Shown here piece by piece: positions 21,501 to 25,300 of a DNA stretch of 64,000 bases (its first letter is position 1; each line of letters begins with the position of its first letter). Under the pieces are notes generated by a model that was given only the letters and a program-made list of their open reading frames with translations, ran no database searches and had not been told where the DNA came from. Origin of the DNA: Lytechinus variegatus (lineage: Eukaryota; Echinodermata; Echinoidea; Temnopleuroida; Toxopneustidae); the NCBI RefSeq assembly GCF_018143015.1, contig NC_054743.1:34621934-34685933 (forward strand). Direction: 5' to 3'. Position numbers and translations under genes: made by a program.

Positions 21501-22164
21501 ATAGCTTACAAAAAAACTTTTTAGTGGAAATCACTGACAGCGTACATGTACTTCATGAAAAGCACCCCTGAACCCTGTCACATTAAAAAAAAAATACTGT
21601 TAAGAACCTTGGGTATTCTTTTTTTACCATATTTTATACTGTAAGTTGTGTTAAAAAATTGGTGAACAGACCCTCGATGTCTCGGCACTGTTTCACACAA
21701 GTTGCCATCAATGACAAATTCTATATCAATGATATACTACCTTGGACAATCTGGCTCTACATCTAATTGGCCGGTAATGTCTGTTGCTATGGCAACTGTC
21801 AATAAGTTACAACTTGTTCAAAGCAATCTATGCGAAACAGGGTATGATATACATGTACGTGGAATGCTTTTGATACTTTTCAAGCATACTCTGAAAAAAA
21901 GTCAAATAAACAAACCTTCACATATTAAATACTGCAAAACAATAAATATTTAATATGATTGTGGAGTATTTATATCTCTCTATTTAAGGATACAAGGTGG
22001 AAATGAAGAGATGTTACATAAAAGTAATGGAAATGTAAACACATATTAACTCAAGATAACATTAGGAAGTGGAATCATCGCTGTGTTTAAAGCACTCAAT
22101 TGTCCATTGGTCAAATCCTTTGCACCGGTCATAGAGCATTCTCTGATGACGGGTTTCCGATGGT
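18572..22164. other. Convergent intergenic region and possible long DYNLT1 3' UTR
   Basis: AT-rich DNA between the TIMM13 side and the DYNLT1 stop codon. I found no exon on either strand and no multi-copy repeat shared with the rest of the window. Minus-strand poly(A)-signal candidates are TTTAAT near 21950 and TTTATT near 21019, read as ATTAAA and AATAAA on the DYNLT1 strand; neither is proven. Confidence 0.4.
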
Positions 22165-22313
22165 TTAGATGGCCAATCCAAAGACACTCACAATGCAATA
22201 CATGGTCTTGTTCTCCCATCTTACAGTACAGCTCCCGTCGGTGGAGTTATCCCAGAAACATGAACTGGCTGTGTGTAGGCCTGCACCGTTCTTCTGCATG
22301 ATCACACATGTGA
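22165..22313 (-). CDS. DYNLT1: DYNLT1 exon 3
   Basis: It encodes residues 65-113, the beta-strand half of the fold, from [12 protein letters not shown] to VSVFGLAI, followed by TAA at 22165-22167. The acceptor is TTTTTCAG. Joining exon 2 completes the Val codon (G|TC). Confidence 0.95.
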
Positions 22314-25300
22314 CTGAAAAAGAGAAACAAATATACACGTACATTTACTATCGACTATAATATCTGATAAGGGCAAGTCCAAGAATTCGCGCGCGTTACG
22401 TATGGGACATTTCAGAGGTTTCAATGACCTGAAAAATAGTGTTAATTGACTCTGATTAGATTGAATACCCTCATGATGGTAGACATCTAGGAGAAGAATA
22501 ATCATGGAAAAAATGGTGACATATGACCTTGACCTTGAACTTTTAGAGAGAAAAGATGGGCCGTTACGTATGGGACGCAGAGAAAAGACAATTTTTAGAA
22601 CATTTTTTTCAAGTTGAGAATTCTCTGAAAGTATTTCATTTGACAACTTGTAACTTAGTGTGATAGAATTCACAATACTCTAGTATATCTAAGGCAAGTT
22701 TCATGTCATAAGTCAAATCCCTCTAATTACAGACTCTAATTAAACAAATTAATGACATGTTACGTATGGGACAGTTACGTATGGGACATTTTGTCCCCAT
22801 AGAGAACGTACACAATTTTCCCCATAATTAAAAAAATTGAAATAATTTAAAATATAGAAATAACCAAAGAGTTTCTGTCTTTTCAAATGTTCTATTGAGA
22901 CATATTTGATATGACTGAAAAGGAAATTAGCCATTTTAACTTTTTTTTCCTTGTTTTTCATGGTTTCATGAATTTCTTATGTATTTCTATTGTTTTTTAT
23001 TTTTTTCATATTTTTCCATTTTCAAAATTTTTTCGCTTCAGTTGTTTTCATTAATCAGTATTTATAACAAATCAGTCCTTAAAAACTAAAGAAAAGGTAA
23101 ATAATCACTGTTTAGAGCACTCTTGAAATTTGTTTTTTCTCCATTCACTTTGTACACAAATCTCCCCATTGACATTGTGTGTAAATGTCCCATACGTAAC
23201 ATGTTGTCCCATACGTAACAATTTTTTAATTAACTTTTAATTAAAAAGTAAACTCTATTTTTGAAACTTTTTGTGGTATAACATTTTCATACTTTATAAA
23301 TTAGAACTTCCCAGAGATGCAACAATAAAAGTATTGTATTATGAGAAATAACTTTAAAAAACATCCTCAAAATGTTACGTATGGGACATTCCATCCTTGG
23401 ACAAGACCTAATTTGCATAATTAATTAGATGACACCACTTTTTTTCCCTCATAAGTATTAAGATGTTAGGGGGTCCATGTCCCACCTATGACTAAATCTC
23501 ACAAGTTTTGTTTTTATTTTTTATGAGTTTTTTATAATTGTCCCATACGTAACGCCCATTTTACCAATTATGCAAATTAGGTGCCCCAAATTAGCATAAA
23601 TATGCATATTATCACATTTCTCTTAATGAAATTTTAAAATTCCACATTTAGGCTTTCTTACTCCACCAAAGATAACTTCTTAAATTAAAGATGAAATTTT
23701 GCCTTCTAGGGTGACCTTTTCTTGGACTTGCCCATAACACATGTATGTACATGTAAACCTAGCACTACTGTGTATTTGTGCAGACATGAAGATATCTGTG
23801 ACTATAAAAGAATCTTAATTTAATCTCTCCAGAGTAATAATAGTAACATATGTTTTGATCTCGTACCCGTTTGAAATTTGAACAAAATTCCGGTCAGACA
23901 TGTATGTACTTGTCACTTTTCTGAAGCACTAAATGAATTCAGGTGCTTTTTTCAGCGCTTCATATACATGTACAGACTGGGTAACAATTTGGACCGTAAC
24001 AGCTCACATTGTGTAACTTAGTCAAATCAATGCTAATGGCTTAAATGTTTTTTTTGTAAGGACTCATTCTCAGCCCGTAGGCAGACCTTGATTGAAACTT
24101 TAATCAACAAGTGGGCCTTGACACAATACTAAAATAAACATAAATACACCTTACTGTTTCAATTTCTGAGAGGTAGGATAGGTACATGTAGGGACTATTT
24201 TCACTTTAGCAAATGATTTGCACAGTCTTACCAATAACTCAGTCTTACCAATATATTTGAAAGGCTTTCCTAGTTTGGTGAGTTGATTTAGACACTGCTC
24301 GACTACATTCGACGTCCACTGGTTGACCTTGTTGTGTTGGTAAGCACTGCCTCCGATGGTCCCTTCTACGGCTTCCTTGATAATGTTACTCACTTCATCC
24401 ACAACAAATGTAGTCTAAAAATGAAAAAAAAAGGTTGAAATTGTTAATATGACTGTATGATATGATAAAAGTCTTGTCCATGCCTCTGAAAGTTTCAGTG
24501 CCAGTATTCAATTTAATAGTCTACTCTTACCTTTTTTTTTTGGCTAAGCCAAGTAAAATGGTAATTACAATTAAACTCTTTGTGCACTGGGCCATGACCC
24601 CTCTGTGCTGAATCATTTTTAGGGAGGGAAACAATGGATTGTTTGCTTGAGCGTGAAAGGCGGCGCGTGGCGTGAGTGTGCATTTGTGCGAAGTACACAT
24701 GGAAAAGGTTGATTCACACGGTCTCTGAGTTAAATACCCAACCATGTCTTGAGGTCTTGAGAAATATTTTCAAGCTCGATTTGCGTGCCGTTGCCAAGAA
24801 AAAGACAATGAAATCAAGATGGCGACGTAAACATGGTGTAGGTATGTGACTATCGCGCAATATGATCTCAATACCGGGGCAGCGGTTTCAAAACGAGCTT
24901 GGGTTGCTCTGTAAGGGGTGGCTTTAAATGGGTTTAGATTTGGCAGTTTCTTGCCAATTTGGCTTATTTTCACCAATGACATAGCTGAAAAAAATCCCCT
25001 TTGCCTTGATGTTAAATTTTGAAGATCGGACGCATGGAAGTTGGATTTGGCTCATGTGAAAGTCTAATGTTGTCTTTACCATTGAAACCGGCCCTGGAGG
25101 TAAGTTTTGACAGTTTTTAAACCTATTTTTACAGCTTGTTAATATATTTTTCTTGGTGTGTGGTGAATATAAATCGAGTCTAAAAATCTGATCATTTATT
25201 TTTTACATCCTAAAAATTGATTGTCAGAAATAAACTGCCGTGAGAGTTGCGTGCTACGCGACCATCATGATGACTGATGAGTGCCGTGACGCCGGGAGCC

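What the first reader, a model, noticed from the sequence alone, without database searches (positions are those of the whole stretch)
22371..23733. Non-coding transposon with eight copies of GTTACGTATGGGACA in both orientations
Seen directly: perfect 14-bp terminal inverted repeats, an ATAA target duplication, and eight copies of one 15-mer that stay almost identical while the intervening sequence shows no comparable repetition. Five are forward and three inverted, and two abut head-to-tail. Conservation of a short motif at scattered positions suggests a protein-binding site under selection, for example for a transposase or a host zinc-finger protein. The element occupies most of DYNLT1 intron 2, so it is transcribed with that gene. 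I do not know a described family with this motif.
Basis: partly seen in the sequence, partly recalled or inferred. Interest (0 to 1): 0.78.

Follow-up and report, generated by a model that had tools for sequence, protein, structure and literature searches.

The report
Non-coding transposon family with conserved motif
A short piece of mobile DNA that seems to make no protein of its own has spread to hundreds of places in this animal's genome, and eight copies of one 15-letter word inside it changed far less than the rest, as expected if some protein must grip that word for the DNA to move.

Summary
At 22371-23733 lies a 1363-bp element with 15-bp (not 14-bp) terminal inverted repeats, an ATAA duplication and eight copies of GTTACGTATGGGACA: seven exact, one ending in G; five forward, three inverted. 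The genome holds 1,696 exact motifs against 4 for the reversed control, and 671 exact terminal repeats against 0: perhaps 335-430 insertions. Of 62 valid end pairs examined, 48 have a 4-bp duplication; a copy inside another copy shows the empty site.

The motif looks constrained while the element is mobile. In 68 copies its 92 non-CpG sites carry no variant shared by three or more copies; 13.8 are expected (p=9e-7). Subfamily consensuses differ at 40-64 sites, none in the motif. In five old copies the motif decays nearly like its surroundings. With CpG sites kept, the shared/singleton contrast is not significant.

Best reading: a non-autonomous cut-and-paste transposon whose motif is the docking site of the protein that moves it, as with TNPA in En/Spm. 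No transposase-bearing member was found behind 93 of 94 terminal repeats on one contig. Superfamily unresolved.

The parts
22371..23733 (+). Non-autonomous TIR DNA transposon, window copy (1363 bp, 2.2% from the 1361-bp family consensus)
22371..22385 (+). Left terminal inverted repeat GGGCAAGTCCAAGAA
   Evidence: 671 exact genome copies against 0 in the reversed control
23719..23733 (-). Right terminal inverted repeat (reverse complement of the left)
22367..22370 (.). Target-site duplication ATAA, left copy
   Evidence: 4-bp duplication in 48 of 62 valid family pairs
23734..23737 (.). Target-site duplication ATAA, right copy
22395..22409 (+). Motif copy 1, GTTACGTATGGGACA
22563..22577 (+). Motif copy 2, GTTACGTATGGGACG (the final G is also in the family consensus)
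22759..22773 (+). Motif copy 3, abuts copy 4
   Evidence: 15-bp spacing in 61 of 61 pairs detected
22774..22788 (+). Motif copy 4
23186..23200 (-). Motif copy 5, inverted
   Evidence: 19-bp spacing to copy 6 in 58 of 61 pairs detected
23205..23219 (-). Motif copy 6, inverted
23374..23388 (+). Motif copy 7
23539..23553 (-). Motif copy 8, inverted
22789..23185 (.). Motif-free central stretch of about 400 bp; possible scar of a lost coding region (inferred). Shared-variant density outside motifs: left part 0.171, centre 0.168, right part 0.122 per site, so the centre does not stand out

Best explanation
It is one copy of a young, non-autonomous cut-and-paste (TIR) DNA transposon family of perhaps 335-430 members. 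SHOWN: common ends, a 4-bp AT-rich target duplication, fixed motif order and close spacing in the copies examined, no long coding frame in the window copy, and a deficit of shared variants in the eight 15-bp motifs that old copies do not keep up. INFERRED: a trans-acting protein from an autonomous partner (the transposase, or an accessory DNA-binding protein like TNPA of En/Spm) binds the motifs, perhaps cooperatively at the two close pairs (15 and 19 bp apart). Binding would fold and synapse the ends so that the transposase cuts at the TIRs and inserts with a 4-bp stagger. Copies that lose motifs move less, so mostly variants outside the motifs are passed on. The layout, four motifs on each side of a motif-free centre, suggests an internal-deletion derivative of a larger element that kept both motif-bearing end regions (inferred).
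For: Family: 671 exact TIRs and 1,696 exact motifs against 0 and 4 in reversed controls; first-look candidates 403 for the left end and 432 for the right, 40 scored in each. Transposition: 48 of 62 valid pairs have a 4-bp TSD, 85% A+T against 66% in the flanks; in L029 a copy sits inside another copy, and with one ATAT removed the joined flanks match the consensus at 119 of 120 bases. Constraint: among 68 copies, 0 shared (>=3 copies) variants at 92 non-CpG motif sites against 152 at 1,010 other sites (expected 13.8, p=8.7e-7), singletons 21 against 34.6 expected, contrast p=0.0018; in the 25 copies chosen by TIR alone, 0 against 5.6 expected, p=0.0074. The base-matched expectation is 14.6, and 0 of 100,000 draws of eight other 14-bp windows were equally clean. 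Subfamily consensuses of 57, 9 and 3 copies differ at 44, 40 and 64 sites, 0 in the motif. Five old copies (>=6% diverged): motif 33/417 (7.9%), elsewhere 474/4805 (9.9%). Exclusivity: the 100 motif hits that were listed (of 1,696) lie in 18 loci that all hold element copies. Analogy: TNPA binds repeated subterminal motifs that are cis-determinants, and defective elements move in trans if they keep the cis sequences (PMC2613891, passages).
Against: No transposase-bearing partner was found: 93 of the 94 exact TIRs on contig C1 were looked at, unpaired ones mostly through only about 1.2 kb of inward sequence. Motifs are not confined to subterminal blocks as in En/Spm, and the centre evolves no faster than the left part. 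With CpG sites kept (65 copies), the motif has 6 shared variants, all at CpG, and the shared/singleton contrast is not significant (p=0.24), though the per-site deficit is (p=0.011). Singletons are also fewer in the motif than expected (21 against 34.6). In the 25-copy TIR-only set the contrast is not significant (p=0.36); counting variants in two or more copies it has 3 in the motif against 12.8 expected. With older copies included (72), 2 of 208 informative non-CpG sites lie in the motif. Part of the deficit could thus be low mutability. Old copies still differ slightly less in the motif (7.9% against 9.9%). No binding was measured.
Confidence: 0.7

Rival explanations
1. The motif is the site of a host DNA-binding protein (zinc-finger or bZIP type; TTACGTA resembles a bZIP half-site, recalled) which the element exploits for expression, chromatin opening or targeting. 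The transposase needs only the TIRs.
For: Eight sites spread along the element rather than clustered at the ends. A host protein would also explain constraint during the mobile phase.
Against: Where placed, the motif is confined to the element: 100 of 100 listed hits (of 1,696) lie in loci holding a copy, and the reversed control has only 4 hits genome-wide. A host regulator with a 15-bp site would be expected to have other sites.
Confidence: 0.15
2. The motif has no role. Its copies are alike because they were duplicated or gene-converted recently within the founder element, and low mutability or alignment noise elsewhere explains the pattern among copies.
For: The family is young (mean pairwise divergence 2.65% in 26 copies chosen for like left ends), so between-copy conservation is weakly informative. 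Singletons too are reduced in the motif, and with CpG sites kept the shared/singleton contrast is not significant (p=0.24).
Against: Duplication would carry flanks along, but flanking sequence is largely unrelated between motif copies. Shared non-CpG variants: 0 against 13.8 expected, also with base matching and homopolymer masking; subfamily consensuses differ at 40-64 sites and never in the motif; five old copies lose the motif at nearly the background rate.
Confidence: 0.12
3. The inverted motif pairs act as RNA or single-strand DNA stems (small-RNA source or cruciform) rather than as double-stranded binding sites.
For: Inverted copies can pair in the predicted single-strand DNA fold, for which no shuffled control was given; arms of up to 24 nt at 96% complementarity.
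Against: Complementarity falls to 73-85% over arms longer than the motif; no Rfam match at 22000-24100. Direct tandem copies cannot pair with each other.
Confidence: 0.03

Closest known systems
En/Spm (CACTA) non-autonomous derivatives with TNPA-binding subterminal repeats
   Same: Short TIRs plus many copies of one short motif (12 bp in En-1; about 17-20 bp in soybean relatives) in direct and inverted orientation, cis-determinants that defective elements need to keep (PMC2613891, passages)
   Different: 4-bp not 3-bp TSD; ends GGG...CCC not CACTA; 15-bp motif spread over most of the element rather than in subterminal blocks; no partner protein known
Sola elements (Sola1/Sola2)
   Same: 4-bp TSD and short TIRs: PMC10741241 (passage) gives 4-bp TSDs and TIRs of 11-1124 bp; PMC3627910 (passages) gives AT-rich 4-bp TSDs and 12-13 bp TIRs for three Sola2-type families
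   Different: No Sola transposase found; the Repbase terminal-match rule (same TSD length, positions 1-11, PMC4455052 passage) could not be applied; no repeated motif array was mentioned in the passages seen
MITEs in general
   Same: Non-coding, TIRs, TSD, hundreds of similar copies
   Different: 1.36 kb, longer than the usual <500 bp (PMC10741241 passage); eight constrained internal motifs

Membership tests
Non-autonomous TIR DNA transposon (MITE-like) | Inverted terminal repeats shared by many dispersed copies | tested here: met
   671 exact TIRs; in fetched loci they pair mostly about 1.36 kb apart
Non-autonomous TIR DNA transposon (MITE-like) | Target-site duplication and empty site | tested here: met
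   48 of 62 valid pairs; nested copy L029, 119/120 match to the empty site
Non-autonomous TIR DNA transposon (MITE-like) | No coding capacity | tested here: met
   Window copy only: longest stop-to-stop frame 125 codons, running past the left end; frames not compared with Pfam
Sola | 4-bp TSD | tested here: met
   criterion from PMC10741241 passage
Sola | DDD transposase of Sola type in the family or its partner | tested here: inconclusive
   No coding member seen behind 93 of 94 exact TIRs on C1; other contigs only sampled
Sola | Terminal 11 bases match a classified Sola element | not testable with these tools
   Repbase and Dfam not available
CACTA/EnSpm | CACTA ends and 3-bp TSD (PMC2613891 passages) | tested here: not met
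   Ends GGGCAAG, 4-bp TSD
CACTA/EnSpm | Repeated motif in direct and inverted orientation needed in cis | tested here: inconclusive
   Repeats present and constrained; need for movement not assayed
Ginger | TG...CA ends with TIRs of 40-270 bp (PMC10741241 passage) | tested here: not met
   15-bp TIRs starting GGG
hAT | 8-bp TSD (recalled) | tested here: not met
   4-bp TSD; the hAT-like insert in L019 is a separate nested element with its own 8-bp duplication
piggyBac (TTAA) and Tc1/mariner (TA) | Fixed TTAA or TA target (PMC5199201 passage) | tested here: not met
   TSDs vary; TTAA in 2 of 48

The most novel reading that the evidence does not exclude
An animal 4-bp-TSD transposon lineage moved by a two-part system: a transposase for the short TIRs and a separate protein that coats a 15-bp motif array running through the element. 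This would be an independent counterpart of the plant En/Spm TNPA system.
Probability: 0.25. Interest if true: 0.6.

Novelty: new member of a known kind. Interest (0 to 1): 0.4.

Why it matters
Constraint on a motif is hard to show within one transposon copy. Here many young copies with subfamilies and a few decayed relatives let one separate selection during the mobile phase from decay afterwards, and this points to the cis-sites of an unknown mobilisation protein. It gives a concrete handle (TIR plus 15-mer array) for finding the partner in this and related animals. The window copy in a DYNLT1 intron shows that such sites can be placed inside a transcribed gene.

Tried and rejected
Autonomous partner. 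Three long end pairs on C1 looked promising. L019 carries a 397-codon frame that matches PF18658 above its cut-off and DUF4371 below it, but it is a separate nested insert with CAGGGG-type ends and an 8-bp duplication, TACTAGAG, of the host element. L028 is a nested insert with an 8-bp overlap. L027 is a different element with a 4-bp duplication and other TIRs; four of its frames gave no Pfam match above cut-off. L045, L077-L080 and L092 share 83 bp of the right end and, where compared, their outer flanks too, so they look like one larger repeat carrying a fragment of this element. L087 is another repeat family inserted in an element end. L091 and L093 (L099, L100) share both sides of an old end; frames in L099 reach at most 127 codons and were not compared with Pfam. 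L081, L085, L089 and L094 run into non-element sequence with frames of at most 82 codons in the stretch read. L096 is an old copy with another repeat inserted. C1:90380276 was not fetched.

Other ideas. Extra decayed motif copies in the consensus: none above chance. Motif-free centre as a faster-evolving scar: not supported. Phage records: no match to the element. Viral and prokaryote contigs: no match to two exact motifs within 30 bases. Rfam at 22000-24100: none. Text search for 14-base motif and 13-base TIR strings on both strands: 2 papers, TIR string only, by title and abstract not about transposons (listing). L053 and L054 first looked recombinant; longer flanks suggest one insertion site within an amplified repeat. 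Host: a 104-residue DYNLT1 fragment is closest to Tubulanus polymorphus (95%), then to annelid and mollusc proteins (phyla recalled); it is a conserved protein, so only 'probably a spiralian animal' is claimed. A library search with nemertean, transposon and MITE terms listed 8 of 818 papers, none holding the word nemertean.

Rows left out before the constraint counts: loci that repeat the same place (L001-L008, L068-L070, L072), L025 (same flanks as L024) and the L045-type repeat were skipped; 76 copies were extracted; 68 of them, under 6% diverged and with at least 800 sites, were used (65, with more than 1,000 sites), and 72.

Full report
What is there. The window copy spans 22371-23733 and begins and ends with a perfect 15-bp inverted repeat, GGGCAAGTCCAAGAA, flanked by ATAA. 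Seven exact copies and one single-mismatch copy of GTTACGTATGGGACA lie inside, five forward and three inverted. With up to three mismatches the whole 64-kb window has 11 hits against a shuffled mean of 1.21. The flanks of the eight copies are largely unrelated. In the family consensus every motif copy has 0-1 mismatch and no other site has 2-4, so copies are either kept or absent.

It is a real transposon family. In the 870-Mb genome the motif occurs 1,696 times against 4 for the reversed control, and the terminal 15-mer 671 times against 0. The first 100 motif hits, the only ones listed, fall in 18 loci, and all 18 contain an element copy. An alignment of 35 end pairs gave a 1361-bp consensus. 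Later, 64 end pairs with distinct flanks were examined; two were false pairings across nested copies, and 48 of the remaining 62 have a perfect 4-bp target duplication, 85% A+T. The 14 without one may reflect recombination or decay; this was not resolved. L029 is a copy inserted into another copy: with one ATAT removed, the 120 joined bases match the consensus at 119. That is an empty site of the paralogous kind; the orthologous DYNLT1 site could not be tested.

Is the motif selected? Because the family is young, simple conservation would mean little, so variants were split by how many copies share them. Variants in three or more copies mostly arose in elements that still moved; singletons mostly arose after insertion. 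In 68 copies (of 76 extracted), 92 non-CpG motif sites have 0 shared variants; 1,010 comparable sites elsewhere have 152, so 13.8 are expected (p=8.7e-7). Singletons: 21 against 34.6 expected; contrast of the two classes p=0.0018. The base-matched expectation is 14.6, and none of 100,000 draws of eight other windows was as clean.

Results that weaken this. The first run (65 copies, CpG sites kept) gave 6 shared motif variants, all at CpG, a per-site deficit of p=0.011 and a non-significant contrast (p=0.24). CpG sites were set aside in the later runs because recurrent C-to-T changes mimic sharing; that choice was made after seeing the split. The 68 copies were found in three ways: 17 through exact motifs, 26 through the left end, 25 through the TIR alone. 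The last, free of motif bias, gives 0 against 5.6 expected (p=0.0074), or 3 against 12.8 if two copies count as shared (p=0.0018); but singletons are reduced there too (8 against 22.5) and the contrast is not significant (p=0.36 and 0.75). With older copies included, 2 of 208 informative non-CpG sites lie in the motif (72 copies).

Subfamilies and old copies agree with constraint. Clusters of 57, 9 and 3 copies (three further copies stood alone) have consensuses that differ in pairs at 44, 40 and 64 sites, none in the motif, which covers 8% of the element. The five copies at least 6% diverged have 33 changes in 417 motif positions (7.9%) and 474 in 4,805 others (9.9%), so in old copies the motif is nearly unprotected. 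This fits a role in mobility better than a role that the host maintains copy by copy. Spacing of the close pairs is fixed: 15 bp in 61 of 61 and 19 bp in 58 of 61 detected pairs.

Mechanism. Shown: cut-and-paste signature, shared ends, motif constraint, no long coding frame in the window copy. Inferred: a trans-acting protein binds the motif array, brings the ends together and lets a transposase cut at the TIRs. In En/Spm, TNPA binds repeated subterminal motifs that act as cis-determinants, defective elements move in trans if they keep them, and bound TNPA can block transcription through an element (PMC2613891, passages seen). The window copy fills about 70% of a DYNLT1 intron, so a similar effect on that gene is possible but untested.

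What it belongs to. The 4-bp AT-rich duplication and short repeats fit Sola as described in passages of PMC10741241 and PMC3627910. They do not fit CACTA, hAT, piggyBac, Tc1/mariner or, by its ends, Ginger. No transposase was found: on C1, 93 of 94 exact TIRs were looked at, unpaired ones mostly through about 1.2 kb of inward sequence, and the three long pairs other than the nested copy carry unrelated inserts. Of 30 loci chosen by left-end identity (26 of them new), 29 show both ends at the usual distance and one lacks the right TIR. Membership in Sola is therefore open. No paper in the held library contains the motif string; two contain the TIR string, by listing not about transposons. Repbase and Dfam were not available, so 'undescribed' is not claimed.

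Verdict. The thing is a new member of a known kind with an unusually clear constraint signal. It becomes more interesting if the partner proves to be a two-protein system in an animal.

Noticed in passing
L019 2758-5879 (C1:39.60 Mb): Nested transposon with CAGGGG-type ends and an 8-bp duplication TACTAGAG, holding a 397-codon frame with a zinc finger (PF18658) and a below-cut-off DUF4371 match, inside a copy of the family.
   Followed up: partly
L027 370-3302 (C1:49.68 Mb): A different 2.9-kb element with TIRs GAGCATGATCGGTT and a 4-bp duplication TAAT inserted in a copy; no long frame seen; possibly a second family of the same TSD class.
   Followed up: partly
L045, L077-L080, L092, L097, L098: A larger repeat, about 98-99% identical (5.25 kb between L097 and L098), carries an 83-bp right-end fragment of this element together with shared outer flanks.
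   Followed up: partly
L087 from 60: Abundant repeat family starting TAGGAGTGGGCTATAAATGG (817 first-look candidates, 40 scored) inserted in an end of the element.
   Followed up: partly
L053 and L054: Copies on different contigs share flanking sequence on both sides, resembling a repeat also seen in L096; apparently one insertion site amplified with that repeat.
   Followed up: partly
L034 and L036: Two copies on C1 with the same 10-bp flanks and duplication ATAG, one about 400 bp shorter. An ungapped comparison of longer flanks gave only 65% and 52%, so a shared origin is not settled.
   Followed up: partly
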